Source: a virus. From it: a stretch of 64,000 nucleotides of DNA. Location of the stretch: positions 62,001-126,000 of the IMG/VR virus record IMGVR_UViG_3300010430_000004. The stretch is one strand, 5' to 3'. Below the pieces are notes generated by a model. That model was not told the DNA's origin. It ran no database searches and saw only the letters and a list, made by a program, of their open reading frames with translations. Position 1 is the stretch's first letter. Each line of letters opens with the position of its first letter. The position numbers were made by a program, and so were the translations under genes. This document shows positions 1,593 to 63,464 of the stretch, one piece after another.

Positions 1593-1601
1593 TTAAAGAT
1601 T
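1593..1601 (-). promoter_or_regulatory. Candidate late-promoter element AATCTTTAA (minus)
   Basis: The minus strand reads AATCTTTAA, 26 nt before the ATG at 1567. The same core AATCTTTA precedes the genes at 1644, 4268, 14741 and 13396. Calling it a promoter is inference from recurrence in intergenic DNA. Confidence 0.4.
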
Positions 1602-1620: not shown

Positions 1621-1629
1621 AATCTTTAT
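1621..1629 (+). promoter_or_regulatory. Candidate late-promoter element AATCTTTAT
   Basis: AATCTTTAT 14 nt before the start codon at 1644, followed by a GAGGT ribosome-binding site. It shares the AATCTTTA core with the other structural-region gaps. The 76-nt gap 1568-1643 is divergent, with one copy of the element facing each way. Confidence 0.45.
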
Positions 1630-4236: not shown

Positions 4237-4245
4237 AATCTTTAA
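4237..4245 (+). promoter_or_regulatory. Candidate late-promoter element AATCTTTAA
   Basis: AATCTTTAA in the 44-nt gap before the 2186-residue baseplate gene, 22 nt upstream of its ATG. It belongs to the same motif series as 1621, 14705 and the minus-strand copies. Confidence 0.4.
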
Positions 4246-13086: not shown

Positions 13087-13396
13087 CGCTAGAGCCACTT
13101 AAATCTAAGCTTTTTTCAGAAAGATTGATTTTAACTCCATCAAGCCTTCTGAGCCTATAAAATATAAAAGTAGAAAACATAAGCATGGTAGGCATTATAG
13201 TGGCGGTCATGTAGTCACCTTTAATAGTCATCATAACAGAAGATACCATTATAGTTAAAAAGGCTGTAAAGAAACCAATATAAAACATCATAAGAGTAAC
13301 TGAAGGCTTGCCACGTACAGGGTCATGTACAAACGGCCAGTTCATACCTTTTTTGCACCACTTTTCCCATCTTTCCATTACATCTGCAAAGCTCAT
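13073..13396 (-). CDS. Membrane protein, possible holin
   Basis: 107 residues with a basic amphipathic N-terminus ('MERWEKWCKKGMNWPF'), two membrane spans (about 35-57 and 64-82) and an acidic cytoplasmic tail. A strong ribosome-binding site (AGGAG, 8 nt before ATG) and an AATCTTTAT element just upstream suggest its own late transcription start. Holins have this size and topology, and no other strong holin candidate lies beside the endolysin, but the assignment is inference. Confidence 0.6.
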   Translation of the reverse strand: MSFADVMERWEKWCKKGMNWPFVHDPVRGKPSVTLMMFYIGFFTAFLTIMVSSVMMTIKGDYMTATIMPTMLMFSTFIFYRLRRLDGVKINLSEKSLDLSGSSDEPE

Positions 13397-13410: not shown

Positions 13411-13419
13411 ATAAAGATT
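13411..13419 (-). promoter_or_regulatory. Candidate late-promoter element AATCTTTAT (minus)
   Basis: The minus strand reads AATCTTTAT in the 24-nt gap between two minus-strand genes, immediately before the ribosome-binding site of the 107-residue membrane protein. Same core as the other late-motif copies. Confidence 0.4.
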
Positions 13420-13669: not shown

Positions 13670-13836
13670 TTACAAGATTTACACTTGCCTTGTCTTAGCT
13701 TTAAAAGTTCATTTTGAAGCTTTGTATCAAGAGCATAAAATCCCTTGTCATCGATCACTTTGTTTATAAGGACTTTATTTTTCTCTTGTTCTTCAGCAAA
13801 TCTGATTTTATTACCTAATTTTTCAAAAAATTTCAC
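13657..13836 (-). CDS. Small protein with C-terminal Cys cluster
   Basis: 59 residues from a GTG start. The GTGA junction overlaps the stop of the upstream gene by 3-4 bp, and its end overlaps the next start by 13 bp, which is the usual spacing in this operon. The protein is charged and helical ('MKFFEKLGNKIRFAEEQEKN') and ends in CKSCKC, a possible metal-binding or redox cluster. Without it there would be a 165-nt hole in an otherwise seamless operon. Confidence 0.6.
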   Translation of the reverse strand: MKFFEKLGNKIRFAEEQEKNKVLINKVIDDKGFYALDTKLQNELLKLRQGKCKSCKCSK

Positions 13837-14234
13837 TCTTCATCCTTTTCGCTAACAACTCCATCCACAGTGGCTGGATTGTATTTTTTCATAGCAGTTT
13901 TATTGTCGCACTCAAGGTTGCTACATTTTCTGCTATAATATACGCCATGTGGTAGATTCATCAATCTGATTTCCATAATACCACCACCACAGGTGTAGCA
14001 TTCCCATCTACTCTTGGCTTTGTTGTACTTTTTATTAATTTTTATTTGTTCTTTATCTTCTTCTATTTGCCTAGCTACTAGATCCTGAAGGTCTGCCAAT
14101 CTCTCAGAACTGGTGGCCCTACTTAGTTGGCTTCTTAATGAAGAAATCTGCCTTTTAAGTTTTTTAATAGTTTCCCTAGCTCTTTGAAGTTCATTAAGTT
14201 CTTTCTCGCCGTGAATTCTTCTACCTTTTGACAT
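13833..14234 (-). CDS. Coiled-coil zinc-ribbon protein
   Basis: 133 residues. Residues 8-70 are a charged coiled coil ('ELQRARETIKKLKRQISSLR'). Residues 79-109 hold a four-Cys zinc ribbon (C79, C82, C104, C109). The start has an AAAGGA ribbon-strength ribosome-binding site and lies 100 nt inside the end of the upstream gene in another frame, an unusually long overlap for this genome. Function is not recognised; such architecture suggests nucleic-acid or protein binding. Confidence 0.6.
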   Translation of the reverse strand: MSKGRRIHGEKELNELQRARETIKKLKRQISSLRSQLSRATSSERLADLQDLVARQIEEDKEQIKINKKYNKAKSRWECYTCGGGIMEIRLMNLPHGVYYSRKCSNLECDNKTAMKKYNPATVDGVVSEKDEE

Positions 14235-14383
14235 TGTGTATCCTTTTTAGAACCATCTTTATTAAAGATTTCGGTTTTTCCTGATTTGGTGAAAAATACT
14301 GCAATATATTCTTTTCCCATATATTGCACTACACCTCTGTCACCGTTATAGTCTACAATGTCATTTTCTATAAATTTTAACAT
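14135..14383 (-). CDS. Hypothetical small beta-barrel-like protein
   Basis: 82 residues. The N-terminal 35 residues ('NDIVDYNGDRGVVQYMGKEY') look like a small SH3/KOW-type barrel; the C-terminus is basic and helical. It has a good GGAGG ribosome-binding site and its start overlaps the upstream gene by 7 bp. The last 100 nt also encode the start of the zinc-ribbon protein in a second frame. Confidence 0.5.
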   Translation of the reverse strand: MLKFIENDIVDYNGDRGVVQYMGKEYIAVFFTKSGKTEIFNKDGSKKDTQCQKVEEFTARKNLMNFKELGKLLKNLKGRFLH

Positions 14384-14667: not shown

Positions 14668-14676
14668 AATCTTTAA
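14668..14676 (+). promoter_or_regulatory. Candidate late-promoter element AATCTTTAA
   Basis: AATCTTTAA in the 139-nt divergent gap before the giant fibre gene; a second copy (AATCTTTAT) lies 37 nt downstream. Two tandem copies before the longest gene would fit strong late expression. Confidence 0.35.
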
Positions 14677-14704: not shown

Positions 14705-14713
14705 AATCTTTAT
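14705..14713 (+). promoter_or_regulatory. Candidate late-promoter element AATCTTTAT
   Basis: AATCTTTAT 27 nt before the ATG of the giant fibre gene, followed by a TAGAGGAA ribosome-binding site. Context (TTTATA just downstream) is close to the copy before 1644. Confidence 0.45.
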
Positions 14714-17700: not shown

Positions 17701-20700
17701 TTCTGGTTTTCTTTTTAACTTTCCAGCAACTGCACTTGTAGGTTTGACTAAATATTCTATAGTTGTAAACTTAGAAGACGTAGTTTTTACTGGTGGAAGC
17801 ATAGGGGTATATCACAATACTGCTAACCCTGTTGCCACAACTGGAGTTGGTAGAGTATCAAGTACAAATGGTGGAGGCTCTTGGAGTTTTACTTCAGCAC
17901 ACGACCTTATAGGTACCATATCAATAGAAAGTAAAGGCGTTTCAATTAACTTTGATGCTGATATGTTTCTCGAAAAAGCTGGACTATTATATTCAGCCAA
18001 CACTATCCCAACTTCAGAAAGCCCAATAGCCCTATTAAGCGACAAAGATGTTGCTTATGTTGAGCCAAACCTAATTGCTCCTGGTGGCAATCTTGCGGTA
18101 GTTTTAGATACTCTTGATAACGTTCCACCTACTGCTGTAATTATCGGTAGAAACGATGGTGGCGAAGCTATTGTTGGTTCTTCTTCTACTAGATTAAAAG
18201 TAGGCGAATCAATCAAGCTATATGACACAATTACTGATCAGGCTCGTAACAAAGTTTACGGACATAAATCTGGTTTCTTTAGATCAGATGAACCCATAGT
18301 ATGGACTGGCTCAGAAATCCAACATACTACTGATATAATTTTTGAAACTCTCAAAGACGATGGAACAGAGCAGGCATATACAATAACCGCTCCAGCTCCA
18401 GCTGCTTTGCCAAATATAGAACAAACCGCTCAGTTAGCTTATGGTCTAGCTTTTATAGCTAACAATCATATAGCTCAGACATTTACAGTTCCAGGTGGAC
18501 AAGATTTTGATATCCTAACTTCTGCTTTTAAAATGAGAAGTCAAGGAGCCACTACTGGAACTTTTACTGCTGAAATTTGGGGTGTAGACGGCGGTGGATT
18601 GCCTGATAGCTCCAATGTCGTTGGTACAGCTACAGCTTCTTATGATGCTACAACCTTGCCTACCACTCCCACCGCTGGAGTAGATGCTACTTTTAATTTT
18701 AGTGGAGTAACATTAACTGCTGGAACTCAATACGCTTTTGTTCTAAATGGATCAGCCCTTGGTGGAAGTAATATAGAAATCGGAACAGCCAACTCTGATG
18801 TTTTACCTTCAGAAGAATTGGCCTTTGCAGCAAGCCCAGGAACAACTGGTTCTTGGAGCACAGATAATGAAGATGCTTATTTTGTTATTACTGGACAATC
18901 AGCGGCAGCTTCTCCAACGGCTCTTGCTGATGGAGAGTATGCTTACGTTACTATTGATAGAACACAAGATGCTCAGGCAATAGAATTTACTGTTGGTACT
19001 GCACCAGCTGAAGCTGCTCCAGGAAGTGAAGTAGTTATATTCGGTAAACGTAAAGATGTTTCCGGCGCTGGTTATTTACATCTTCCATTCAATAAACAAG
19101 TACTTGAGCCTGGACAGTCTGTTTTAATCGGAGCTGCTGGATCAGGCGGTAGTGGAACAATTCTTACTGCTGACGTTAAACGTAGGCTTTCTTTTAGCCC
19201 TTATTGTTATGCCACTGCAAACGAGATTGCATTAGATACCGATTCTAAAATCAACACAGTAGATTCAACTGGTGCTTATTCTCCAGCTGATAAGGCTTTT
19301 AAGTTTTCCAGCATAGGTGAAACTTTAGTTTCTAACGAATTGCTGGATGCAGACTTTTGGTCTCAGGGCAAAGACATCACTGAAGCTGAAGCCATGTTTA
19401 GATATGTACTAGCTAGCTATGATGATTCTTCGACCTTTGAATTATCTAGAGATGGTGGAAATGAATATCAAGCATTTGTACCCACTAGAATAGGTGCCAC
19501 GGACACTTTATCTGGAAAGCATGAATTTGCTGAAGAAGCTTCTTTTGCTCATTCATTTAATAATGGTGCTACAGATGGCTCTATAACTTTAACAGATGAC
19601 GCTGGACTTAACCCACTAGAGTCTGGAAGTTTTACCTTAACAGCAACTACAACTTTAAAACAGATTCCATTAAATGTAACTAAATCTGGAACTGCACTAG
19701 GAAATTATAGAATTCAAGTAGTAAAAGACGATGGAGGAAATCCTTCGACTGATACAGCAGACTTGTTATTTGAAAGCTCTGCTAAAAATATAGCTTTATT
19801 ATCTGCTGGTGCCAACGCTACTGTTTTAGATTTTACTTTAACTTTAGTTGCTGGAATCTATCATGTAGTTATTGTTACTGACACTGAATATAAAGATACT
19901 TATACTGCTAACAATGCAAACAATATAGCAGTAGAAGCCACTGGAACAGATTTAACTACTGTAGTTAATGGTAGAGAACTTTCACTATTATTAAGAGTTA
20001 CAGCTGGAACAGCCAATACTCTTTCTCAAGGTTATGGTGTTTTCTACGACAACTCTTATGGCTCTACAGATATTACCCTCAAGAAACAAATAAATAAGTT
20101 TTACTTTAGCAGTGATGATAACAAGGTTCTTTTTAATCTTAACTTTTTGCCTGATCCTGATATTTTGGTTGCTTATGATCCTTTTAGGGGTCAAACTTAT
20201 GTTGCTGCTGATGGTGTATTTAGAATCGAAGGTAACTCTGTTATTTTTGAAGCAGGAACTTTTGCTACCGATCCAACTACAGGTGCTGAAGATATTTTAA
20301 TAATCTTTAGACAAATAGTTGGAAACGGTTTTGATAATTCTGACCAAAATGCTAACAAAATTGCTTCAATAGAATCTCAACTAATTGATATTGGCGATCA
20401 ACTAGAATCTGTTTCTGATTCAATGGTTGTTCCAAAAATTGCCGCCCCTTTTACTACTGTACAAAGCAGAAGCTTAATGCCTGACCTTTCTATGGATTTA
20501 AAACCTAGATTGGGAATTGAACGCATAATGACTCAAAGTGTTTCAAAAATTCAAGATGAAATTGGTCCCAACGGTGGAGCAGTTTATGGTTTAGTAAATG
20601 ACAAATTTGACCAAATAAGATTTGTTGGGGATATTGACTCTAGAAACGACTCTTCTGGAGTATATATAGCCATTAACAACACAGATGGTACTGGATTTGT

Positions 20701-23137
20701 AGAAGTTACTTTTTACGGAACTGGGCTAAATTTATTATACTACTGGAACGGAGTAAGAGATCAGAGAGTATCTGTTGATGGCGGTGCAGAGACCACAATC
20801 AACCCGAATACATCTGGGTTGTTGAATGCTAGAAACTATACTCCAAATACTAGTGTTAATGTAGCTAGTGGATTAACTCTAGGTACTCACACAGTTAAAA
20901 TTAGAAATAACAATGGAGCTGGACAAGGTGTTCTTGGTTTTGAAATTTTAAACGAAGAAGTTAATGGAAATATTTTAACAAATCCTGGGGCACAGCTTTT
21001 CAAGGGCAAACGTTTAGTAAATTCTACCCAAGACTCTACTTCTTACAACTCAGACTTTGAATCTGGAACATTGACCACTTATGGTGGACACGTTTTAATG
21101 TACCAAAAATCCGATGGGTCTGTAGCTAAAGCCGTAAATTCTTCAGATGATACTTTGGGCACAGAATTAATCACCAATGGAACTTTTGACTCGGATATAA
21201 CTGGATGGACAAAAACTGGGGGAAGCCCAGGTACGATTACTCACTCAGCTACTTTTGGTGGAAGTTTAAGGTACAATGATACTGGTGCTGGGTATTTGCA
21301 AGCAAATGCTTTCTTTGCTACCGTTCCTGGTATAATGTATGAAATATCTGTAGATATTAAATCTATTTCTGCCAATCAGTTGGCTGCATTAGTAGGAGAT
21401 GCCGGAGAAGCTTTAGATGGAAACGGCTTTATAGGTATCCCAGGAAGATGGGGTGGCCTTGGTCTTGGTGGGGCACCTAAAGATAATATAAGGTTTAGTT
21501 TTGTTGCCCAAGGTACTAGTGCTAGAATTCAAATTTACGAAGGAAACTCTTCTGTAAACGTAACTGATGCCTTTGTGGACAATGTTTCCGTTAAGGAAGT
21601 GCCAGCAAAAGTTCTTGCAAGTGCTGACCACTCTAATGAAGAAATTATACGTAGGGTCACTTATAAAGAATTTGGTGCTGGACAGTCAACTGCCGATTTC
21701 AGTTCACCGCTTCCAACAAATGCAGGCCAAGGGCCGAGGGCATTTACTCTAGACGATGGAACTATGACTTTACTAAGTGATAATGTAGCTGTTTTTAATC
21801 GAGGAATTTATCCAAAAGATCCTAGCGATATCATCACTTTCACTTTTGTTGGAACAGGTTTGGATCTAATAAGCGTTTCCGACAATGCTTCAACAGCTTG
21901 GGATTATGACATTCATGTAGACGGAGTAAAAATTGGTTCTCCAGATCCTTCGTATTGGAACAACTTTGAAGGAACTAACAAAATAGTTTCAGGTCTTCCC
22001 TATGGAACCCACACTGTTCGTCTTCAAACAATAACAGCATCAGGCACTGCACCAGTGTTTAGAGACTTTATTATCTATGGACCTAAAACTCCGACCTTAC
22101 CTTCAGGGGCTAAGGCTGTTTCTGATTACTTTATTATGGCCGACTTTCGAGAAGCTTATAGTCAAGGGTTGTTAACAGTATCTCGTGGAGCACTAAGAAA
22201 AGACATTTCTAGAGAAATGCTTTATGTAGAAGGGACTGGTGGAGCAAACAACTGGGGATTAAGTTTTGTGCCTTCAGCAATAATTGGTGGATATCAAGCT
22301 TTTAGCGATAGGCAAGATGCTTATATGGAATACACGTTTTTTGGTACTGGATTTGACCTTAGATGGGCGGCTGACACAGGAAGAACAGCAAGCGTAGATG
22401 TAACTCTTAATGGAATTGCAGCTTCAGCAGCAAACTATCCGACAGCAGAATATTTCGAATACGGTGGAACAACAGCTAGATGGAACACAGGTCTTGGATC
22501 TTTATCAATGATAGATACAGGCCCAAACCTTGGTGTTGGCGCTGGAATAAGCAACTTGCCATTAGGAACTTATACTGTTAGGTTTTCTAACAACAATGCT
22601 GGATCTTTTATAGTGCCAGAAGCGTTAGATATTATAACACCTATTCACGCTCCTAAGCAAAATGGGCCATTTACTATTCAGGGTGCGTTAGAAGTTGGAT
22701 CTCAAGGCATTAGAGACTTGAGAAAGTTTAGCAGCAAGGACATTCCAGTTGCAAATATGTCCGGTGCTGGCTATACACAAATGCTTGACTCTTTGACGAC
22801 TTTAAGTGCTGGTCAAGTGAAACCTATTGGTTCTCCAATGAGTATTGTTCTAGAAGAAGATTCTTATGTTAATTTTACTTATAATGTTGAATACCGTTCA
22901 ACAGGGGCAGACTCAGCGGATGATTTCACTGTTTATCTAAACGGAAAAGCATTTGGGCTTAGAACTATAGATCAATCTCACTCAGCTAATAGATCAATAC
23001 AAAGATTCATTAGTGAGAGATTGTTTTTAAGAAAAGGAAGTTACACCGCTCACTTAGAAGTTGCTTCAGGAAGTGCTGTAAGCTTTACTTACAATGCCAC
23101 TAGACATAAAATGACCTATAAAGTGGAGAAAAAATGA
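14741..23137 (+). CDS. Giant tail fibre / adhesin protein
   Basis: 2798 residues. The first 250 residues are a phage fibre N-terminus ('SIESGISNDFDELLNALVTG', then 'FNVNMTGAIGSAASGLQMLV'), likely the attachment to the baseplate. Residues 517-634 repeat a module found in the 2186-residue baseplate protein. Residues about 752-897, 912-1067 and 1240-1387 are three related jelly-roll-like domains with the pattern 'QTFT ... EIWG or ELYDT ... LTAGTTYAIV'. From about 1894 the protein is paralogous to the 735-residue protein at 26706 and holds three copies of an 'F-GTG-L ... GLPxGTHTVR' beta module. It probably binds a host surface receptor. The gene overlaps the next one by 4 bp (ATGA). Confidence 0.85.
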   Translation: MSVKRRVNFVNQMRVDVPAMKSIESGISNDFDELLNALVTGENNSYVIRGFNVNMTGAIGSAASGLQMLVEDSAILHGSSNESGTFFVVPSGTAPQILNSVTNTRVIGSFTPGAQNYISLEFVRQVDDTTTGQVYIWNPANKNETTKTIPLAITMDYNLVIGTTQPASNSLPMALVTTDLSNNVVDITNIKPNLLGLGRGGASPDPTYSYPWTDGREPNALTSSNSLIDPFKGGDLQLQNLKEWMDAVMSRFKEIFGTPYWTSANASGSLASLRQDLANTIFTGRGTVTHSDTVAGQINWSNDLSAVVIGSDIKYVITANPATTDITLADNDVAYITLVRDEDITPNLIFTNASQVVTSVGAIPWTSGLQAGDFVKTATASAALYYEILTVDSPTQVTLVEAYAETDTGAVGVQSQYAFGGYETNPSPSTDRHIKVAQRDQVPFGENIYWVLLRQDNGGSVPRVYARFIGKELEQGETQDINDGTPQAVLDYIGSFSESDSGPDYGQAYTPLVAEVSTITAVAASDITSGQRFSLNASNDIEQYYGWFNKDAAGGDPTPSGLTGIEIPVTTGDNQLVVAAAIQAAVDAISDFNAVDNLNGTVTITNDDAGATTNAANVDVGGAFAIAIDVEGTGDRNRYVIDEENLTKGIKTLDKALGLLQDAIDDLPWKGTAINFAALPSSGNSDGDVRLVLDTRVAYHWDASQSLWLPLTGGSGLKLIGGGTVSLTKVKELVGTIEQLVNTASINNPNQNNFTAQTFTPAVDTTVSAVELLFWGAGSAPVGTVTCEIWGTDGSSEPDETNILATSTPLDVTGIPDFVDDIRQFTLTAPITLTAGTTYAIVSNTDNMTGGFIRYRGSTANPYAGGSVFAQSSPPTGAWSNPGGGAYDLWFRILEEQDAQEVIYNSPNASPDQFFAPNNNYRMGQNFIPPESGNLTSASLFLAGSGFSGSGSIKAELYDTSGNNPNTLIATSTNTVDPTTLPSHPSASGFLFNFPATALVGLTKYSIVVNLEDVVFTGGSIGVYHNTANPVATTGVGRVSSTNGGGSWSFTSAHDLIGTISIESKGVSINFDADMFLEKAGLLYSANTIPTSESPIALLSDKDVAYVEPNLIAPGGNLAVVLDTLDNVPPTAVIIGRNDGGEAIVGSSSTRLKVGESIKLYDTITDQARNKVYGHKSGFFRSDEPIVWTGSEIQHTTDIIFETLKDDGTEQAYTITAPAPAALPNIEQTAQLAYGLAFIANNHIAQTFTVPGGQDFDILTSAFKMRSQGATTGTFTAEIWGVDGGGLPDSSNVVGTATASYDATTLPTTPTAGVDATFNFSGVTLTAGTQYAFVLNGSALGGSNIEIGTANSDVLPSEELAFAASPGTTGSWSTDNEDAYFVITGQSAAASPTALADGEYAYVTIDRTQDAQAIEFTVGTAPAEAAPGSEVVIFGKRKDVSGAGYLHLPFNKQVLEPGQSVLIGAAGSGGSGTILTADVKRRLSFSPYCYATANEIALDTDSKINTVDSTGAYSPADKAFKFSSIGETLVSNELLDADFWSQGKDITEAEAMFRYVLASYDDSSTFELSRDGGNEYQAFVPTRIGATDTLSGKHEFAEEASFAHSFNNGATDGSITLTDDAGLNPLESGSFTLTATTTLKQIPLNVTKSGTALGNYRIQVVKDDGGNPSTDTADLLFESSAKNIALLSAGANATVLDFTLTLVAGIYHVVIVTDTEYKDTYTANNANNIAVEATGTDLTTVVNGRELSLLLRVTAGTANTLSQGYGVFYDNSYGSTDITLKKQINKFYFSSDDNKVLFNLNFLPDPDILVAYDPFRGQTYVAADGVFRIEGNSVIFEAGTFATDPTTGAEDILIIFRQIVGNGFDNSDQNANKIASIESQLIDIGDQLESVSDSMVVPKIAAPFTTVQSRSLMPDLSMDLKPRLGIERIMTQSVSKIQDEIGPNGGAVYGLVNDKFDQIRFVGDIDSRNDSSGVYIAINNTDGTGFVEVTFYGTGLNLLYYWNGVRDQRVSVDGGAETTINPNTSGLLNARNYTPNTSVNVASGLTLGTHTVKIRNNNGAGQGVLGFEILNEEVNGNILTNPGAQLFKGKRLVNSTQDSTSYNSDFESGTLTTYGGHVLMYQKSDGSVAKAVNSSDDTLGTELITNGTFDSDITGWTKTGGSPGTITHSATFGGSLRYNDTGAGYLQANAFFATVPGIMYEISVDIKSISANQLAALVGDAGEALDGNGFIGIPGRWGGLGLGGAPKDNIRFSFVAQGTSARIQIYEGNSSVNVTDAFVDNVSVKEVPAKVLASADHSNEEIIRRVTYKEFGAGQSTADFSSPLPTNAGQGPRAFTLDDGTMTLLSDNVAVFNRGIYPKDPSDIITFTFVGTGLDLISVSDNASTAWDYDIHVDGVKIGSPDPSYWNNFEGTNKIVSGLPYGTHTVRLQTITASGTAPVFRDFIIYGPKTPTLPSGAKAVSDYFIMADFREAYSQGLLTVSRGALRKDISREMLYVEGTGGANNWGLSFVPSAIIGGYQAFSDRQDAYMEYTFFGTGFDLRWAADTGRTASVDVTLNGIAASAANYPTAEYFEYGGTTARWNTGLGSLSMIDTGPNLGVGAGISNLPLGTYTVRFSNNNAGSFIVPEALDIITPIHAPKQNGPFTIQGALEVGSQGIRDLRKFSSKDIPVANMSGAGYTQMLDSLTTLSAGQVKPIGSPMSIVLEEDSYVNFTYNVEYRSTGADSADDFTVYLNGKAFGLRTIDQSHSANRSIQRFISERLFLRKGSYTAHLEVASGSAVSFTYNATRHKMTYKVEKK
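20691..22653 (+). repeat. Three GTG/THTV beta modules in the giant fibre
   Basis: Three protein-level repeats at about 20691-20961, 21829-22083 and 22321-22653. Each starts with a strand such as 'VEVTFYGTGLNLL', 'ITFTFVGTGLDLI' or 'MEYTFFGTGFDLRW' and ends with 'GLTLGTHTVKI', 'GLPYGTHTVRL' or 'NLPLGTYTVRF'. The same three occur in order in the 735-residue protein. Confidence 0.75.
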
Positions 23138-30492: not shown

Positions 30493-30599
30493 TTAATTCT
30501 CTTAAGAATAACCTTTTTAGGTTTTGTAATTTTCTTATAAAGATAAATAGATATAAGAGAAAAAACCAAAAATATATAGCCGAAATAAATTAATGCCAT
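30489..30599 (-). CDS. Small single-span membrane peptide
   Basis: 36 residues: a hydrophobic helix ('IYFGYIFLVFSLISIYLY') followed by a strongly basic tail. It fills the space between two minus-strand genes exactly, overlapping the upstream gene by 10 bp and the downstream start by 4 bp (ATGA), which supports it as a real gene. Function unknown; topology would be N-out/C-in. Confidence 0.5.
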   Translation of the reverse strand: MALIYFGYIFLVFSLISIYLYKKITKPKKVILKRIK

Positions 30600-30841
30600 T
30601 CTAGCTCTAATTGTCCGTTGTTTTCTTCGTTAACCATAGAGTATACTGAAATTCCCATATCTGCTACTTGTCTTTCAAATTCTCTAAGCTTAGAAGTTTC
30701 GCAAATAACTATACAGTTAAAGAAACCAAGCTTTGCGTGTTTCATTACTATTTTTTCTACTTCTTTCATTGTAGAGCAAATCTTATCGTGGCTTTCTTTA
30801 ACAGCTTTAAGTGAAATCTCTTTTAGTTCATTTCTTTTCAT
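30590..30841 (-). CDS. Hypothetical protein
   Basis: 83 residues, helical N-terminal half with alternating charges and a short beta segment ('GFFNCIVICETS') followed by another helix. No family recognised. TAGGAG ribosome-binding site. It is the first gene of the minus-strand unit and diverges from the CYTH gene across a 53-nt gap that contains a perfect palindrome. Confidence 0.55.
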   Translation of the reverse strand: MKRNELKEISLKAVKESHDKICSTMKEVEKIVMKHAKLGFFNCIVICETSKLREFERQVADMGISVYSMVNEENNGQLELEWH

Positions 30842-30860: not shown

Positions 30861-30874
30861 TAATATCGATATTA
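30861..30874. promoter_or_regulatory. Palindrome between divergent operons, possible operator
   Basis: TAATATCGATATTA is a perfect 14-nt palindrome centred in the 53-nt gap between divergent start codons at 30841 and 30895. Position and symmetry suit a binding site for a dimeric regulator of both units; no binding protein is identified. Confidence 0.35.
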
Positions 30875-30894: not shown

Positions 30895-31515
30895 TTGGAA
30901 AAAGAAACGAATAATTCTAAAGAATTTGACAAGATTGATCAAGAATTTCTAGAATTTGAAACAAAATACAATACCGATGGTGAACTTGTTTACAAATTTA
31001 AAGAAATTGTAGGTAGCCACCCAGATATTGAAGACTTCTTATATGTAGAGGGCGACGACATTTATTATACTAAGGGCGAAGAATTCCTTAGATATAGAAT
31101 GCCACAATCAAAGAAAAACAAAAGAGCAGAACTAACATACAAAACTAAACATGGCAACAAAAATAATATTGCTAGAACTGAAGTTAATTTAAGAGTAGAC
31201 CCCAATGACCACGCTACTGTAGAAAAATTTGTCAATATTCTTGGTTATGAACAAAATTTTAGAATCACTAAGATTTGTCATATATACTATACCAAAGAAG
31301 CTAATCTAGTTTTTTATAGCATTATTGACCATGCCAACAAATCTAAGTCTATGAGCCATTTCATAGAAATTGAAGTAAACGAAGAATTGGCCACTGGCCT
31401 CACTGAAGAAGAAAATTGGGATATTATTAGAAAGTGGGAAGGCGTTATGGCCCCCCTTGGAGTTCTTGCTCAGAAGAGATTAAGAAAATCACTATTTGAA
31501 ATGTATAGGAAATAA
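30895..31515 (+). CDS. CYTH-domain-like protein
   Basis: 206 residues from a TTG start with a strong GAGGAG site. Residues 65-165 resemble the CYTH fold (triphosphatase / class IV adenylyl cyclase): 'KKNKRAELTYKTK', 'ARTEVNLRVDPNDHATVEKF', 'KICHIYYTKEANLVFYSIID' and 'SHFIEIEVNEE' give the alternating charged strands that line the tunnel and bind metal-triphosphate. Family members hydrolyse triphosphates or make cAMP; the substrate is not predictable. First gene of the large + strand replication/recombination unit. Confidence 0.6.
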   Translation: MEKETNNSKEFDKIDQEFLEFETKYNTDGELVYKFKEIVGSHPDIEDFLYVEGDDIYYTKGEEFLRYRMPQSKKNKRAELTYKTKHGNKNNIARTEVNLRVDPNDHATVEKFVNILGYEQNFRITKICHIYYTKEANLVFYSIIDHANKSKSMSHFIEIEVNEELATGLTEEENWDIIRKWEGVMAPLGVLAQKRLRKSLFEMYRK

Positions 31516-32715: not shown

Positions 32716-33260
32716 TGCTTATAGCCTTTGTTGGATCACCTTGTTCTGGCAAGACTACAGCTGCTGCTGCCTTATTTTCTGAATTGAAAAACATGGGCAA
32801 GCCTGCTGAGTTCTTTCCTGAGTATGCTAGAGAATATATTATGAAGAAAAGATTCACTGAAAAGACAAGTGAACTAAATGAACAAGATCAGTTAAATATT
32901 TATGATGGGCAAAAAGGCATAGAAGAATCATATAAAGTAATGAGCCCTAATTCCATAACTATTACCGATGGTTCTACTCTCAATTCATATTTTTATGGTT
33001 TAAACAAATATGTAAAGCTGGAAGAAGAACTTCATAGATATGATGTTATTTTCTTTTGTCGTGGTTTAAAAAATAATGATCAAGATGATAATCGTGTTCA
33101 CGATGAAGATTTTTCTAAACAAATAGACAAGCAGATGGCTAAAAAAATACACAAATATATCAATAATATAAGCGAAGATTCAAAAAAGATCTGTACTCTT
33201 TGGGGCAACAGAAAGCAACGAATGAAGACAGCACTGGAATTCTTGAATGAAGTTTCGTAA
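32715..33260 (+). CDS. NadR-like P-loop kinase (AAA_28 type)
   Basis: 181 residues. 'AFVGSPCSGKTTAA' is a Walker A loop at residues 5-16; 'FPEYAREYIM' is the motif typical of NadR ribosylnicotinamide-kinase-like ATPases, followed by 'ITITDGSTLNSYFY' (Walker B region). NadR-type enzymes phosphorylate nicotinamide riboside for NAD synthesis; several phages encode NAD-salvage kinases. The exact substrate is inferred. TAATG coupling to the HAD gene; 14-bp overlap with the helicase gene. Confidence 0.65.
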   Translation: MLIAFVGSPCSGKTTAAAALFSELKNMGKPAEFFPEYAREYIMKKRFTEKTSELNEQDQLNIYDGQKGIEESYKVMSPNSITITDGSTLNSYFYGLNKYVKLEEELHRYDVIFFCRGLKNNDQDDNRVHDEDFSKQIDKQMAKKIHKYINNISEDSKKICTLWGNRKQRMKTALEFLNEVS

Positions 33261-34788
33261 AGTATCACCTACAAAAGCTTATATTGTAGATTATACTGAA
33301 GCTGAGTTTGCTGATCTTGAAAAGCATTGCAAATACACCAATAGTAGTGTTGGCTTTCAATTATCAAAACACATGAAAAATACCAGATACAGGAACTGGT
33401 GTGCAGCAAACAATAGCTCTAAATGGGAAGATACCAAAAATGAGCTAATAGCCAAAAAAGATCATTCACTATTGCAAAGAGACAAAGAAGGTTGGCACCT
33501 TTACCCAGGCTACTTGGGCTATTTGCCTAAGAAAATAAAAGTGGAAGTTGAAGACAATTCAACCTACCCAGAATTCAAACTTCTGGCTTGGAAACACAAG
33601 TTTCCCCATGAGCTGTATAATTGTCAACAAGAGACCATTGATCTCATGTTAAAGAACCCTCACTGCCACGCCGAACTTGCCACTGGTATTGGTAAAACTA
33701 TCACAATCATTACCCTTGCCCAACAAACAGGCAACACTATTATTGTTACTCCATCTAAGGATCTATTTAAGGATCTTGTTAAAAAATTCACCTACTATCT
33801 TGGAGCAAACAACGTAGGAACGTATGGAGATGGAAAAAAGAAAATAGGAAAACCTGTAACTATATGTATAGCCAAGTCGTTGACAATGATCAAGCCGAAT
33901 ACTCTTGAATGGGAATTCTTTAGTAACGCGTCAGTGGTCATAGGTGATGAGTGCCACACACTGGCAGCAGCAACACTAGAGAAGACATTTCACAATGTAC
34001 TAAGCAACGTACCATACAGATGGTTTTTGTCCGGCACAGCTGTACGTGGTGACGGTACTGGCAAGATGTTGAAGAGTGTAATAGGGCCACAAGTTTACAG
34101 TTTTAACACTAAACAAGGCATAGAGGCTGGTATACTCTGTAATTTAGAATTTAAAATAGTAAAAATACTCACGGATAAGCCTGGAAAAACCTCAAAAGAC
34201 CCTATGGTTGAGAAAAGAAATCATTTGCTTAGAAATACAAATGCTTCAAATTTTTATTCAAAAATGGCTAACTTATTGTATGAAAAGAAAAATCAGAAAA
34301 CGTTGATATTAGTAGAAGAGATTGAGCAGATATGTATGCTTGCTAAAAAATTAAGAGTGCCCTTTACCTATGCCCATGGCAATACTGTTAAAAAGGCTGA
34401 TCTTGAAAAACTTAACAAGAAACATGGAACCAATATTGAAAGCCGAACAAAAAATGATGAAAGAATTGACGCATTTAATAAGGGTGAATTTGGTGTTTTT
34501 ATTGGAACCAGCTGTGTAAGTACTGGTACAAATTTTTTCGCCAATGCTCACACAATGAATTGGCAAGGTGGAGGCTCAGAAACTTCTACTAAGCAAGGAA
34601 GTATTGGCAGATCAGTTAGACAACTGCACCTATCAGAGTATGCTCATTTACATGACCCTATTACTCTTAGAACTGTATGGGACTTGGATATTGTTGGAGT
34701 AGAGAAAATGCAGAAACAGTTAATGCAACGAATAGAGTACTACGAAGAAACTGGTGAAACCTTAAAGTTTATAGAAGGAATTAAATAA
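33247..34788 (+). CDS. SF2 DNA helicase, UvsW-like
   Basis: 513 residues. Motif I 'ELATGIGKTI' (145-151), motif II DECH (234-237), motif III 'LSGTAVRG' (262-265) and motif VI 'GSIGRSVRQ' (about 451-459) define a superfamily 2 helicase. Length and the N-terminal non-helicase domain of about 100 residues match T4 UvsW, which remodels stalled forks and branch-migrates recombination intermediates; this suits the gp46/47 and RuvC-like genes nearby. Starts inside the NadR-like gene and ends in TAATG. Confidence 0.85.
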   Translation: MKFRKVSPTKAYIVDYTEAEFADLEKHCKYTNSSVGFQLSKHMKNTRYRNWCAANNSSKWEDTKNELIAKKDHSLLQRDKEGWHLYPGYLGYLPKKIKVEVEDNSTYPEFKLLAWKHKFPHELYNCQQETIDLMLKNPHCHAELATGIGKTITIITLAQQTGNTIIVTPSKDLFKDLVKKFTYYLGANNVGTYGDGKKKIGKPVTICIAKSLTMIKPNTLEWEFFSNASVVIGDECHTLAAATLEKTFHNVLSNVPYRWFLSGTAVRGDGTGKMLKSVIGPQVYSFNTKQGIEAGILCNLEFKIVKILTDKPGKTSKDPMVEKRNHLLRNTNASNFYSKMANLLYEKKNQKTLILVEEIEQICMLAKKLRVPFTYAHGNTVKKADLEKLNKKHGTNIESRTKNDERIDAFNKGEFGVFIGTSCVSTGTNFFANAHTMNWQGGGSETSTKQGSIGRSVRQLHLSEYAHLHDPITLRTVWDLDIVGVEKMQKQLMQRIEYYEETGETLKFIEGIK

Positions 34789-35840
34789 TGGCATTTAAAA
34801 GATTCGACGATTCTTTTTATAAACTAGCTAATCAAATAGCTGTAGTTCTTGAAAGAAACAAAGATCCCAAATACGATGGTATGAAGGATTGGGAAATTCA
34901 AAAAGAGCAACTAGAAAATCTTATGAAATATGAAGACAAGTTCAAACAATCCATATACAGAAGCATTCAGACCAGAGAGATTTACAAAAAGTTTATCATA
35001 ACTACTGTTCAAAACAATATCCTTTCAGCTCGCCCTTTCTTTAGAGAGAAAGCCAAAGTATTTAGCGCCGAAATTACACCAGCTATTCGCGAAGGTGATT
35101 TTGAGGCTCTTAAGACTTTTAAAATCAATTATAAATTTATCCAATTTATTAGAGAAAACTGGAAAGGTAAGTTTCCAAATAAAGGCGAGCAATGGTACGA
35201 AAAGATTATGAAATCTAGGACATTGCTTATAGAAAACTCTCTACCTTTGGCTGTAAACATTGCTAAACGTTTCTATAAAAGCGTACCAGAAAGCCACATG
35301 GAGCTGCTAGACGCTATTAATATTTGTGTAGACGGACTTATTTCTGGAGTAGACAAGTATTCGGCTGAAGAGTATACTAAGGTTTTTAGAAGCGTATGTA
35401 TTGGTAGAATGAAAGGTGGAATGGTAGAAGACTACTCTCAAACTCTTATTCACTTCTACCCATCTGATAAGAAAATTCTTTATAAAATTAATATTCTAAG
35501 AAATAGAGAAAAAATTACAGATATTCACCATTTATGTGAAAGACTAAATGAAGTAATTAAAGAAGACCAAAAAGAAGGCAAGAACCTAAAAGTAGATACT
35601 GTAACTGTTCCAGAAATTATGAGACTGATGCATGGCTCTTCTACGTTTAGTGCCGATCAAGCAGCAAACGAAGATGAAGAGGGCAATGATATCAATATTT
35701 ATACCTATGCTGCTGATGACAAACCCACCCAAGAAGAAATGGTTGAGAAGGCTGATCTGCTTGGTAAGATCTTTGATTCTTGTGAAGATCTTGATATTTT
35801 AGAAATGAAGATATTAAAACTCAAAGGAATTTCAATATGA
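34788..35840 (+). CDS. Sigma-70-like factor lacking region 4
   Basis: 350 residues. Residues 145-220 follow sigma region 2: 'LLIENSLPLAVNIAKRFYK', 'LLDAINICVDGLISGVDKYS', then 'VFRSVCIGRMKGGMVEDYSQ'. The stretch 'MVEKADLLGKIFDSCEDLDI' and 'LEMKILKLKGIS' looks like the start of region 4, but the protein stops there, so the -35-binding helix-turn-helix is absent. T4 gp55, which directs late transcription, is likewise a reduced sigma. It probably redirects host polymerase to a short phage promoter. The next gene starts 4 bp before its stop and does not supply the missing part. Confidence 0.75.
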   Translation: MAFKRFDDSFYKLANQIAVVLERNKDPKYDGMKDWEIQKEQLENLMKYEDKFKQSIYRSIQTREIYKKFIITTVQNNILSARPFFREKAKVFSAEITPAIREGDFEALKTFKINYKFIQFIRENWKGKFPNKGEQWYEKIMKSRTLLIENSLPLAVNIAKRFYKSVPESHMELLDAINICVDGLISGVDKYSAEEYTKVFRSVCIGRMKGGMVEDYSQTLIHFYPSDKKILYKINILRNREKITDIHHLCERLNEVIKEDQKEGKNLKVDTVTVPEIMRLMHGSSTFSADQAANEDEEGNDINIYTYAADDKPTQEEMVEKADLLGKIFDSCEDLDILEMKILKLKGISI

Positions 35841-36139
35841 CAAGTATTAATCGTGTGTTTTGTGAAACTTATCAGAAAAAAGGCGTAGAAGTCAAAGCAA
35901 GCAAGGGCCTAGCTCTTGGTGGAGCTAAACAGAAGATTTCAGTGATCAAATTAGAGGTGTTGGTTCATTGTCAAATCTTTATGGGATCACAAGTATTAGA
36001 AATCGAGGCTGGACAAAAGCTTTTAGTAAAAGAAGAAGATCTTCATATAGGCGCTACTGGTGCTCAACAATTAAATATGGATGGAATTGAAGGTCCTTTT
36101 ATTATCATTGATCCTGCTTATATTTATGGTATAGAATAA
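35837..36139 (+). CDS. Hypothetical beta-rich protein
   Basis: 100 residues, mostly beta strands with alternating Val/Ile/Leu, possibly a small barrel or cupin-like fold. The start overlaps the sigma gene (ATGA) and the end overlaps the next gene by one base. Because of that coupling it may work with the sigma factor, but it is not a missing region 4. Confidence 0.5.
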   Translation: MTSINRVFCETYQKKGVEVKASKGLALGGAKQKISVIKLEVLVHCQIFMGSQVLEIEAGQKLLVKEEDLHIGATGAQQLNMDGIEGPFIIIDPAYIYGIE

Positions 36140-36399
36140 TGGATAAAAAGCTGAAAAGCAAGATTCAACAATCAATGCTTGAGCTGTATAACGAGGAAAC
36201 TTACAAAAACAAAAATAAACCTCTAACAGTAGATCAGATGCAAGTAATGCTTCCTTTATGGTGGAAAAAATTAGAGAGACAAGGATTAACTAAACCTCTT
36301 CAGAAAAGAAATTTTGGATACTCTAAATTTGTTGAGTCTTTTTTAAGAGTAAAACAGAGAGAAGAATTATTTAAGCATTTTAATATTAACTATAGGTAG
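36139..36399 (+). CDS. Hypothetical basic helical protein
   Basis: 86 residues, helical and basic, with 'MLPLWWKKLERQ' in the centre. No family recognised. It sits between the sigma-like gene and the gp47-like nuclease; small T4 transcription co-regulators occupy a similar size class, but no motif supports that. Confidence 0.5.
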   Translation: MDKKLKSKIQQSMLELYNEETYKNKNKPLTVDQMQVMLPLWWKKLERQGLTKPLQKRNFGYSKFVESFLRVKQREELFKHFNINYR

Positions 36400-36401
36400 A
36401 T

Positions 36402-37391
36402 ATGTACATTATCATTGGCGACCCTCACATTACTAAAAGAAACCTTAAAGAAAGTAAAAAATTCTTTAAAGAGCTTTTTAATAAAATAGATTCAATGAAT
36501 GGAGTCGAGCCAGTAGATGTCATTTTCCTTGGTGATGGTCAACATACTCATGCTACTATTTCCATGGAAGTTTTAAATCTTTGGGACAAAATATTCAAAG
36601 CCCTTTCTAAGGCACCTAATACAAGAAGTGTAATTTATCTTGTAGGAAATCACGACATTTCTGGAGAGGTTTCTCGTGAAAGAGAAGAATCTTCTTTTAG
36701 TGTATTCAAAGACAAATATAGTAAAGTTATGATCATTGATAAGCCAATTATATTTGGAAACGTAGCTTATGTTCCATATACTTCTTCTGAAGAGTTGTTT
36801 GTTAAAGATTGTCAATATCTTTATGATAATGGTGCAGAAAATACTGTAATTTGTCATCAGACCTTTAACGGTGCTAAATTTGAAACTGGTATGTATGCTC
36901 CTGAAGGTTTTGATCATTCTAGAGTTCCACAGAAAAATATAATCAGTGGGCATATTCATAAAAGACAAGAATTTGAAAACGTCATATATCCTGGAACGTG
37001 GAGATGGATGACAAAAAGTGATGCTAACGATGATAAGGGTATTTTCTTTGCTGAAGAATTGGATATTGAAAAAATCGAACTAGAGTTTTCAAGCACAGAA
37101 AATGTATGTACTCCAATAAAAGAATATATTCACAATGAAGGCGAAAAAATGCCTGATCTTAATCCAGATCATAAAAACTACATGACTCTTGTAGGGACAG
37201 CTAAATGGGCGAATACTACTAAGAAGAAAATAAAAGATAATGCTATTATAAAAATACACACAACAGATAATAAAGCTAGACGTGTAGAAGTTTCAGAAAA
37301 CGTAACCATAGTAGAGTTTATTGAAAAGCACATGGATCTTGAAAAAGAAGTAACCAAGAAAGAAGTCATTCAGTATATAGGTGCGCTATGA
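36402..37391 (+). CDS. Mre11/SbcD-like nuclease subunit (T4 gp47 type)
   Basis: 329 residues. The metallophosphoesterase signature is complete: D7/H9 in 'IIGDPHI', D45 in 'FLGDGQHTH', 'GNHD' at 82-85, H151 in 'ICHQTFNG' and 'SGHIHK' with H183/H185. Length and placement with the Rad50-like gene identify the nuclease subunit of the gp46/47 recombination complex, which resects DNA ends for phage recombination and repair. Its partner gene lies 2.6 kb downstream at 39981, not adjacent as in T4. Confidence 0.85.
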   Translation: MYIIIGDPHITKRNLKESKKFFKELFNKIDSMNGVEPVDVIFLGDGQHTHATISMEVLNLWDKIFKALSKAPNTRSVIYLVGNHDISGEVSREREESSFSVFKDKYSKVMIIDKPIIFGNVAYVPYTSSEELFVKDCQYLYDNGAENTVICHQTFNGAKFETGMYAPEGFDHSRVPQKNIISGHIHKRQEFENVIYPGTWRWMTKSDANDDKGIFFAEELDIEKIELEFSSTENVCTPIKEYIHNEGEKMPDLNPDHKNYMTLVGTAKWANTTKKKIKDNAIIKIHTTDNKARRVEVSENVTIVEFIEKHMDLEKEVTKKEVIQYIGAL

Positions 37392-37774
37392 GTACCCTAG
37401 CAATTATTGATGATCTTAGAAAAATGATGATTATGTCTGGCAAGATGAGTGATCTTCACTATGCTAACTTACAGGGTTGGGGTCAATTAGTGTTTTCTGA
37501 CTATGAATCTGTTGAAATTGAATATGATATTAAGACCACTGATCCTAAAAAATATAGAGAACTTACAGGACATTCTCTTAAATCTGTTGACGAAAAAGCA
37601 GCTTTTGGGTCTACAATCACTTATAGAGTAAAAACTAAAAAAGGCAAGAGAATTACAAAAAAACAGGCAGAAACTGCCCTAAATAGCCTTAAGCTGTGGA
37701 TAGGCCATTTATTTTGGTCAGATATCCAAGTCCAAATCTTTATTAATAAGAAGGAATACAAGGGTTTATCGTGA
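37388..37774 (+). CDS. Hypothetical protein
   Basis: 128 residues, mixed alpha/beta with a basic middle ('RVKTKKGKRITKKQAETAL'). ATGA overlap with the gp47-like gene. No family recognised. An AATCTTTAT element lies inside its 3' end, 28 nt before the start of the next gene. Confidence 0.5.
   Translation: MSTLAIIDDLRKMMIMSGKMSDLHYANLQGWGQLVFSDYESVEIEYDIKTTDPKKYRELTGHSLKSVDEKAAFGSTITYRVKTKKGKRITKKQAETALNSLKLWIGHLFWSDIQVQIFINKKEYKGLS
37735..37743 (+). promoter_or_regulatory. Candidate late-promoter element AATCTTTAT, intragenic
   Basis: AATCTTTAT within the previous gene, 28 nt before the GTG of the terminase-small-subunit-like gene. The spacing matches intergenic copies, and terminase is a late function. 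Being intragenic, it could be chance. Confidence 0.3.
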
Positions 37775-38418
37775 GTGAAGAAAATAAAGACATTGTAGAT
37801 GTTACTGAAATCAGCACTGATTTTACTTTTCAGGAAGAAACAGAGCTACAAAAATTTGTAGAAAAGGATATGCCTGGACTAACAAGCGTAACTGATGATA
37901 AGCTAACTCAGCTGTTTTCTATGTATATGAAGGGTAAAAGTTATACTGAAATTTCTCAGCATCTTAAAGTCAAAAAACCTGTCATTCTATGTCTAAGCAA
38001 ACAAAACGGCTGGTATGATAAAAAGGTAGAATATTACAATGCTATTCAGGCCAATATTCAGGATCGTTTATTACAGACTAAAATAGAGTCTACTAAATTC
38101 TTGGCAGATATTGTAGGCTATTACCATTCCACTATGGGTGCCAAGGTAGAACAAGCCCTTGCTGATGGAAAAAAGATTTCTGAGCTTATGGATAGCAAAG
38201 AGTTCGCTGTATACTTTAGAGCACTAGAGGCTCTTGAAAAAGGATCAGGCAAATCAGTAGATCCAGGTGGAAAAGGCCCAACTATCAACATTCATGGTGG
38301 AGCTAAAACTACAGTTTCTGAAGATGGAAAGACTCTAGAAATAGACACTTCCTCTGGAGAAGTAGGAGATATCCTCAAGTCCTTGGCTGAATTAACAAAG
38401 GCTAGAAAAAAAGACTAG
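37771..38418 (+). CDS. Terminase-small-subunit-like HTH protein
   Basis: 215 residues from a GTG start. Residues 45-80 ('LFSMYMKGKSYTEISQHLKV') form a helix-turn-helix followed by 'KQNGWYDKKVEYY', the pattern of phage terminase small subunits that bind the packaging site. The C-terminal third is Gly-rich ('GGKGPTINIHGGAKTTVSED'), as in several small terminases. The large subunit is not in this window. If the assignment is wrong, it is still likely a DNA-binding protein. Confidence 0.5.
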   Translation: MSEENKDIVDVTEISTDFTFQEETELQKFVEKDMPGLTSVTDDKLTQLFSMYMKGKSYTEISQHLKVKKPVILCLSKQNGWYDKKVEYYNAIQANIQDRLLQTKIESTKFLADIVGYYHSTMGAKVEQALADGKKISELMDSKEFAVYFRALEALEKGSGKSVDPGGKGPTINIHGGAKTTVSEDGKTLEIDTSSGEVGDILKSLAELTKARKKD

Positions 38419-38806: not shown

Positions 38807-39721
38807 ATGTCAAAATTAGTTACACTTTTATTTGCATTTGCTCTGGCATTCAGTGCTAACGCAAAAACAAGTAAAGTTGCAAAGGTCAAATTGACCGTAG
38901 ATAACACTATTGCCTTAAATGGGCCAGTAATGGAAGATAGCGTACAAGCTGTCCAACTTAAAGCCAAAAAATTGGATGCCACACTAAAAAGTGGATACCC
39001 TATTTATCTTATCTTGAATACTCCAGGTGGATCTATTCAGGCTGGATTAGAGCTTATTGAGTTTATGCGTTCACTAAATCGTCCAGTACATACTGTGACT
39101 ATTTTTGCTGCTTCTATGGGTTTTCAAATCGCCCAACATCTTGGCAAACGTTATATCCTTAAGTATGGTGTTCTTATGAGCCACAAAGCTTCTGGTGGAT
39201 TCCGTGGAGAATTTCCTGGACAATTAGATAACCGTAGAAATTTCTGGGGTCGTCGATTATATGAAATGGACGCTGTAACTGTTAAGCGTACTCGTGGTAA
39301 ACAAACAATGAAAACTTATCGTACTGCTTATGAAAATGAGCTATGGGTTGGTGGAGCAGATAGTAGAAAACTAGGATACGCTGATCAAGTTGTTCGCATG
39401 AGCTGTTCAAAAGAACTTTCTGATAGCCGTGATAAATTGGAAGTTTATTCTTTCTTTGGTAAATTTAACCTAGAATTTTCTGGTTGCCCTACTATTACAG
39501 GACCAACTGCTGTTACTGCAATGATTCGTACAACTGAAGGTTTAATGAGCATGGAAGATTTCAACAAAAAGGGTGGAGTTTATCCTAATGAAATCGGAAA
39601 AGACACCTATGCACCACTTAAAGCATTATCTCCCAAAGTTACTCAAGAGCTTATCCTTGACGAACTTAAAAAGCACCAATACAAGTTTCTTAACAGAGAC
39701 GCTGTTATTCGGAGTTACTAA
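38807..39721 (+). CDS. Secreted ClpP-fold serine protease-like protein
   Basis: 304 residues with a Sec signal peptide ('LLFAFALAFSANA', cleavage near 19). The ClpP/crotonase core shows 'ILNTPGGSIQAGLELI', the nucleophile in 'FAASMGFQIAQ' (S103) and the His in 'LMSHKASGG' (H126); D185 is a candidate third residue. Cytosolic ClpP has about 200 residues and no signal, so this is an exported variant (compare membrane-associated ClpP-class proteins). It has the best ribosome-binding site in the region (TAGGAGGA) and uses many CGT codons, unlike its AGA-rich neighbours. Envelope or host-protein processing is inferred. Confidence 0.75.
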   Translation: MSKLVTLLFAFALAFSANAKTSKVAKVKLTVDNTIALNGPVMEDSVQAVQLKAKKLDATLKSGYPIYLILNTPGGSIQAGLELIEFMRSLNRPVHTVTIFAASMGFQIAQHLGKRYILKYGVLMSHKASGGFRGEFPGQLDNRRNFWGRRLYEMDAVTVKRTRGKQTMKTYRTAYENELWVGGADSRKLGYADQVVRMSCSKELSDSRDKLEVYSFFGKFNLEFSGCPTITGPTAVTAMIRTTEGLMSMEDFNKKGGVYPNEIGKDTYAPLKALSPKVTQELILDELKKHQYKFLNRDAVIRSY

Positions 39722-63435: not shown

Positions 63436-63464
63436 GGGTAATCTTTACCTTAAAGGGAGCTTAT

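What the first reader, a model, noticed from the sequence alone, without database searches (positions are those of the whole stretch)
34788..35840. Sigma-like factor truncated before region 4
Region 2 signatures are well kept but the protein ends after the first residues that look like region 4, so it cannot bind a -35 box in the usual manner. T4 gp55 is a reduced sigma that reads a single -10-like element with a co-activator and clamp. The short AATCTTTA element could be its target; a co-activator may be among the small genes at 35837 or 36139.
Basis: partly seen in the sequence, partly recalled or inferred. Interest (0 to 1): 0.65.

Follow-up and report, generated by a model that had tools for sequence, protein, structure and literature searches.

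The report
Phage late sigma with half region 4
This phage gene encodes a transcription-start factor that keeps the part reading the DNA close to a gene's start but always stops halfway through the part that reads further upstream, and the phage's particle-building genes carry a matching single eight-letter signal, which points to a compact late-gene switch shared by a whole lineage of poorly known phages.

Summary
ORF 34788-35840 (350 aa) is a sigma70-family protein: a 58-member family profile aligns with housekeeping SigA/RpoD from region 2.1 through region 3 and the finger into the first helices of region 4 (E 4e-11), then stops about 51 residues before RpoD does. The stop is not an accident: 73 of 73 scorable relatives end within 14 residues (61 at exactly 3) after the same LKG motif. 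AATCTTTA lies 12-41 nt upstream of about 18 genes of this 168.5-kb phage, including portal, baseplate and tail genes: 17 upstream versus 2 coding hits, 147-fold. It has no -35 partner. AATCT(T) recurs at late genes of most relatives, including Myxococcus phage Mx1 (15 versus 1.1 expected). The proposed co-activators fail: 35837 encodes a GroES-like protein, 36139 is not conserved, and no T4-type clamp or gp33 was found. An unexpected candidate is a 72-aa protein encoded elsewhere, found in 18 of 19 searched contigs, that resembles the missing half of region 4. Best reading: a -10-only phage late sigma, a new variant of the phiEco32 gp36/T4 gp55 kind, possibly a split sigma. No biochemistry exists.

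The parts
34788..35840 (+). Truncated sigma70-family factor (350 aa): N-terminal helical domain (about 33-125), region 2 (about 131-217), region 3 (about 225-294), acidic finger/linker (295-314), first two helices of region 4 (315-332, 337-345), then stop
35837..36139 (+). GroES/Cpn10-like protein (100 aa) whose start codon overlaps the sigma stop; conserved next to sigma in relatives; not a gp33-like co-activator
   Evidence: AF2 beta-barrel with disordered mobile-loop region; top Foldseek hits are Cpn10/GroES, T4 gp31 also listed; conservation
36139..36399 (+). 86-aa ORF, unknown, not conserved in relatives; unlikely co-activator
   Evidence: no family hits; most relatives go from the GroES-like gene to SbcD directly; not among core proteins
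33247..34788 (+). DNA helicase upstream of sigma (conserved neighbour)
   Evidence: phrog_16 E 1.9e-46
36402..37391 (+). SbcD-like nuclease subunit (conserved neighbour)
   Evidence: phrog_100 E 9.7e-30
30867..30874 (+). CGATATTA middle-class promoter-like element at the head of the operon containing sigma
1594..1601 (-). AATCTTTA late element, 34 nt before ORF 1208-1567 (-)
1621..1628 (+). AATCTTTA late element, 23 nt before baseplate gene 1644-4223
4237..4244 (+). AATCTTTA late element, 31 nt before baseplate wedge (J-like) gene 4268-10828
13412..13419 (-). AATCTTTA late element, 23 nt before ORF 13073-13396 (-)
14263..14270 (-). AATCTTTA late element, 36 nt before ORF 13833-14234 (-)
14668..14675 (+). 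AATCTTTA copy, 73 nt before 14741-23137 (second copy at 14705)
14705..14712 (+). AATCTTTA late element, 36 nt before the 2798-aa putative tail/fibre gene 14741-23137
37735..37742 (+). AATCTTTA late element, 36 nt before the putative small terminase gene 37771-38418
63440..63447 (+). AATCTTTA late element, 25 nt before the exonuclease-like gene starting at 63465

Best explanation
The protein is the phage's late sigma factor. It binds the host RNA polymerase core through region 2, places its region 3 and finger as a normal sigma would, and opens promoters by reading one strict element, AATCTTTA (core YAATCT, read here as a -10 hexamer with A at -11 and T at -7), just upstream of virion genes. 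It stops before the region 4 helix-turn-helix, so it neither reads nor needs a -35 box. Early and middle promoters look like host-sigma promoters, and the sigma gene lies in the middle operon, giving an early/middle (host sigma) to late (phage sigma) cascade. Shown: homology, conserved truncation, the element, its late-gene placement, absence of a -35 signal. Inferred: that this sigma is what reads the element, that it uses host core enzyme, and where transcription starts.
For: Sigma homology through regions 2-3-finger. Family-wide stop in region 4.1. AATCTTTA 147-fold enriched upstream, invariant octamer; on both strands, before portal, baseplate and tail genes. Upstream information at late sites is no more than random (4.26 bits, random mean 4.04, 95% 4.99) while early sites show a strong upstream element (21.9 versus random 6.7). 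In Mx1, GC 56% and 32% identical sigma, AATCTT is the top hexamer upstream of plus-strand genes (15 versus 1.07 expected, p 8e-13). AATCT variants recur in most relatives and at orthologous late genes: 63/240 late versus 9/156 other, p 6e-8 (one of the 9 is a contig-edge artefact). No phage RNAP beta found. Precedent: phiEco32 gp36 lacks region 4 and reads a single tAATGTAtA element (PMC8948821).
Against: No experiment exists. All these genes are core to one lineage, so co-occurrence of sigma and element is not independent proof. A second class (CGATATTA/TGATATTA) is also conserved and lacks a tested -35. Several fragments and GC-rich relatives (G002, G003, G004, G010; G021 only weakly) do not show the element clearly, and in this phage the major capsid gene has no AATCTTTA within 70 nt. 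Only one RNAP beta family was searched. The AF2 model is moderate (pLDDT 74) and Foldseek TM-scores to SigA are low (0.3-0.4).
Confidence: 0.8

Rival explanations
1. Split sigma: the missing half of region 4 is supplied in trans by the conserved 72-aa protein (contig 129017-129235, outside the window), which docks on the polymerase flap but, with an acidic recognition helix, does not read a -35 box. It would do the job of T4 gp33 with a true region-4 relative. This extends the best explanation rather than excluding it.
For: Found in 18 of 19 contigs with the truncated sigma that were searched; the exception is a 30-kb fragment. Sigma70_r4 is the Pfam family hit by most members (6 of 18, best E 0.003). 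Profile comparison: sigma4 89%, GerE 27%, HTH_3 5.5%, shuffled columns at most 4%. The sigma C-terminus covers sigma4 columns 4-25 and the small protein 24-63. Recognition helix net -1 to -5 in all 18 versus +1 in RpoD. T4 gp33 also clamps the flap tip like region 4 and carries acidic residues facing the zinc-binding domain (PMC7892883).
Against: Similarity is weak; the putative small terminase family scores as high against sigma4 (90.8%), so the match does not prove a transcription role. The gene sits in a replication operon with PolIII alpha, not beside sigma.
Confidence: 0.3
2. T4-type system: gp55-like sigma, gp33 co-activator and a phage sliding clamp.
For: Truncation, single-element late promoters, and neighbourhood with SbcC/SbcD (T4 46 and 47) as in T4.
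Against: No gp45-type or bacterial beta-type clamp gene, no gp33 hit, no gp55 profile similarity, C-terminus LKGISI is not a clamp-binding peptide, replication polymerase is PolIII-alpha type, and the protein keeps region 3 and the finger.
Confidence: 0.07
3. AATCTTTA is read by another phage factor together with host sigma, and the truncated sigma serves the middle promoters or is an inhibitor of host transcription.
For: Two conserved short-element classes exist; nothing shows directly which protein reads which.
Against: The middle and early elements fit extended -10 host promoters (TGnTATTAT, TGTTATAYT), and the sigma gene itself lies in a CGATATTA-headed operon, so reading that class would be circular. 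No other core phage protein looked like a promoter-reading factor among those tested.
Confidence: 0.13
4. AATCTTTA is an RNA element (translation or processing signal), not a promoter.
For: It always lies 12-41 nt before start codons.
Against: Distance to the start codon and ribosome site varies, while the octamer is invariant and restricted mainly to virion genes; the Mx1 version keeps only AATCTT.
Confidence: 0.06

Closest known systems
phiEco32 gp36 (and its single-element middle/late promoters)
   Same: Phage sigma reported to lack homology with region 4, reading a single tAATGTAtA element with starts 6-8 bp downstream (PMC8948821); element strikingly like tAATCTTTA
   Different: 214 aa versus 350 aa; no detectable sequence relationship here; phiEco32 is a 77.5-kb phage of E. 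coli
T4 gp55/gp33/gp45 late transcription
   Same: Sigma without region 4, single -10-like late element, sigma near the SbcC/D genes
   Different: No clamp or gp33 gene found; protein keeps region 3, finger and half of region 4; different element
Myxococcus phage Mx1 WNM70309 'putative RNA polymerase sigma factor'
   Same: Same family, same truncation, same gene order, AATCTT before late genes
   Different: 32% identity; the genome paper does not discuss the sigma, its truncation or promoters
Bacillus subtilis SigO-RsoA two-subunit sigma
   Same: Precedent for region 4 separated from the other sigma regions (PMC10141391)
   Different: There both subunits read promoter DNA (own knowledge); here the region-4-like piece is acidic and unproven

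Membership tests
sigma70 family (housekeeping SigA/RpoD-like) | Region 2 collinear with SigA/RpoD | tested here: met
   E 4e-11
sigma70 family (housekeeping SigA/RpoD-like) | Region 3 and finger present | tested here: met
   collinear alignment 138-341 to RpoD 370-562; AF2 helices 225-294 plus linker
sigma70 family (housekeeping SigA/RpoD-like) | Complete region 4 helix-turn-helix | tested here: not met
   protein and 73 of 73 scorable relatives end in region 4.1
T4 gp55-type late sigma | Sequence relationship to gp55 | tested here: not met
   hhalign probability 0.1-0.5%; single-sequence template, so weak
T4 gp55-type late sigma | Phage sliding clamp gene | tested here: not met
T4 gp55-type late sigma | gp33 co-activator | tested here: not met
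   phmmer and hhalign negative; analogue possible (72-aa protein)
T4 gp55-type late sigma | Single -10-like late promoter without -35 | tested here: met
   (by sequence; different octamer)
phiEco32 gp36-type sigma | Sequence relationship to gp36 | tested here: not met
   single-sequence template
phiEco32 gp36-type sigma | Single-element promoter, no region 4 | tested here: met
Two-subunit (split) sigma | Separate conserved protein carrying the missing region-4 part | tested here: inconclusive
Two-subunit (split) sigma | Physical and functional interaction of the two parts | not testable with these tools
   needs biochemistry or complex prediction
Phage multisubunit RNA polymerase sigma-like subunit (AR9/phiKZ) | Phage-encoded RNAP beta/beta' genes | tested here: not met
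   RNA_pol_Rpb2_6 absent; beta' not separately tested

The most novel reading that the evidence does not exclude
A viral sigma factor is split inside region 4: one gene carries regions 2, 3, the finger and the first half of region 4; a second, unlinked 72-aa gene carries the second half with an inverted (acidic) recognition helix, forming a region 4 that grips the polymerase flap but reads no DNA, dedicated to single-element late promoters.
Probability: 0.27. Interest if true: 0.82.

Novelty: new variant of a known kind. Interest (0 to 1): 0.62.

Why it matters
It gives a whole uncultivated lineage of large contractile-tailed phages (about 75 members seen here, one isolate, Mx1 of Myxococcus) a readable transcription programme: early, middle and late elements can be called from sequence. 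It adds a region-4-less late sigma with no evident clamp to set beside gp55 and gp36, which lets one ask what region 4 and the flap contact are needed for when no -35 box is read. If the 72-aa protein is its partner, it would be a sigma factor cut in the middle of a domain, and a sequence-based link between gp33-like flap binders and true region 4.

Tried and rejected
GroES-like 35837 gene as co-activator: rejected. 86-aa 36139 gene: not conserved. T4 clamp, gp33, gp55: negative. Phage-encoded RNAP: beta family absent. Complete region 4 elsewhere by Pfam: none in this phage; in relatives, weak hits mostly to partial domains, some at the 72-aa locus. phiEco32 gp36 homology: none detected. Raw motif count: not enriched in the window, only its position is. 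In Mx1 the first enrichment run with crude ORF starts was dominated by TAGATC/GATCAA; with annotated plus-strand starts AATCTT ranked first. First sigma4 control profiles were built from wrongly oriented loci and redone. A scan of viral contigs with the 72-aa family alignment was not possible. One apparent 941-aa sigma fusion (L139) is read-through of an open out-of-frame stretch.

Full report
WHAT IS THERE. The window is bases 62001-126000 of a 168,536-bp virus contig, GC 36%. ORF 34788-35840 (+, 350 aa) overlaps a helicase gene upstream and a 100-aa gene downstream. Single-sequence searches find sigma factors (phrog_351 E 2.4e-6, residues 135-344; NCBIfam sigma models) though Pfam does not. 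One annotated phage record holds a relative: Myxococcus phage Mx1, annotated 'putative RNA polymerase sigma factor', in the same gene order helicase - sigma - small gene - SbcD. IMG/VR scans gave 16 and then 76 loci, and GTDB genomes 6.

THE TRUNCATION IS REAL AND CONSERVED. A 58-member profile aligns with SigA/RpoD chains in the PDB at E down to 4e-11, from region 2.1 through region 3, the finger and the 'ER.VLRL' start of region 4; in E. coli RpoD the match ends at residue 562 of 613. AlphaFold2 (pLDDT 74) gives helices 131-165, 173-190, 199-217 (region 2), 225-294 (region 3), a low-confidence acidic linker 295-314, helices 315-332 and 337-345, then the end. Foldseek finds sigmaA chains first in the PDB, with low TM-scores, probably because the domains are placed differently. 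Of 75 non-identical family sequences, 73 could be scored and all 73 stop within 14 residues, 61 of them at exactly 3, after the LKG motif; the two unscored ones are frame-broken fragments from MAG contigs. The lost part is the region 4 helix-turn-helix.

THE ELEMENT. AATCTTTA occurs 33 times on the contig, against 19 expected from base composition alone, and its count in the window is ordinary. Its placement is not: 17 of 7,880 upstream positions against 2 of 136,262 coding ones, while one-mismatch versions are not enriched. Eighteen upstream sites, on both strands, lie 12-41 nt before start codons. Genes with it include portal, two baseplate genes, the large tail/fibre gene, a run of small structural-block genes and the putative small terminase. 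Information content upstream of the late sites equals that of random sites (4.26 versus 4.04 bits), whereas ten early sites (CTAGCATTTTTT, then CATGTTATA) show 21.9 bits against 6.7. So the late element is single. A further class, CGATATTA, heads the operon that holds sigma and precedes the PolIII alpha gene; in relatives it reads TGATATTAT, like an extended -10 of host type (the comparison with host consensus is my inference).

CONSERVATION OF THE ELEMENT. In Mx1 (GC 56%), AATCTT lies 12-42 nt before 15 of 85 annotated plus-strand genes (1.07 expected; p 8e-13; the top-ranked hexamer), among them portal, both baseplate genes and the tail-fibre homologue. AATCTTTA, CAATCTTA, CCTAATCTT, CAATCTAT and similar forms are enriched in most other large relatives. 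At orthologous genes the core is found before 63 of 240 late-gene instances and 9 of 156 others (p 6e-8; one of the nine is an artefact of a contig edge). G002, G003, G004 and G010 do not show it clearly and G021 only weakly; the first three are fragments near the sigma locus. The major capsid gene here has no AATCTTTA within 70 nt.

PARTNERS. The 100-aa gene is a GroES-like protein: a predicted beta barrel with a disordered loop at 16-30, whose best Foldseek matches are Cpn10/GroES chains, with T4 gp31 further down; the phage also encodes GroEL. The 86-aa gene at 36139 is absent from relatives. No gp45-type or beta clamp, no RNAP beta, no complete region 4 was found. Screening conserved proteins by eye turned up a 72-aa protein (contig 129017-129235), present in 18 of 19 contigs searched; the exception is a 30-kb fragment. 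Sigma70_r4 is the Pfam family its members hit most often, weakly (6 of 18, best E 0.003). Profile comparison prefers region 4 (89%) to GerE (27%) and HTH_3 (5.5%), with shuffled controls at most 4%. The sigma C-terminus matches region-4 profile columns 4-25 and the small protein columns 24-63: complementary halves. Its recognition helix is acidic in all 18, so -35 reading is unlikely. Caution: of 65 core families, the putative small terminase scores as high, and the 72-aa gene lives in the PolIII alpha operon.

MECHANISM. Shown by sequence: a sigma without the region 4 HTH, kept so across the family, and a single late element without -35. Inferred: this sigma with host core reads AATCTTTA, probably as YAATCT at -12 to -7, starting 6-8 nt downstream by analogy with phiEco32 (PMC8948821), which would put the start near the ribosome-binding site. 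phiEco32 gp36 is the nearest working model because its region-4-less holoenzyme is reported to be active on single-element promoters; T4's system adds gp33 on the flap and a clamp (PMC7892883; PMC2988020). Whether the 72-aa protein plays the flap role is the main open question.

NOVELTY. Region-4-less phage sigmas and single-element late promoters are known, so this is a new variant of a known kind. Not found in the papers searched: this family's truncation, its late element, or a sigma split inside region 4. Only open-licence papers were searched, so absence there is weak evidence.

Noticed in passing
35837-36139: GroES/Cpn10-like co-chaperonin gene whose start overlaps the sigma stop in many relatives; the phage also encodes GroEL (contig 163545-165317, -).
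   Followed up: yes
contig G000 129017-129235 (+), outside the window; Mx1 157473-157685 (-): 72-aa region-4-like protein with an acidic recognition helix, conserved in 18 of 19 searched contigs of this phage lineage.
   Followed up: partly
contig G000 e.g. 110726, 130397, 136207, 143331, 150530 (+), 30749 (-): Early-type two-part promoters: CTAGCATTTTTT plus CATGTTATA about 30 nt before start codons.
   Followed up: partly
30861-30874 and other sites: CGATATTA middle-type element; here a palindrome serving divergent genes at 30590-30841 (-) and 30895-31515 (+).
   Followed up: partly
37771-38418: Putative small terminase with a helix-turn-helix that also scores well against sigma region 4; carries its own late element although it lies inside the middle operon.
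   Followed up: partly
38807-39721: ClpP-like protease gene (Pfam CLP_protease E 1.9e-15) between the putative small terminase and SbcC.
   Followed up: no
13833-14234 (-): 133-aa ORF under a late element with a weak DksA-like zinc-finger match (phrog_54, E 0.0016).
   Followed up: no
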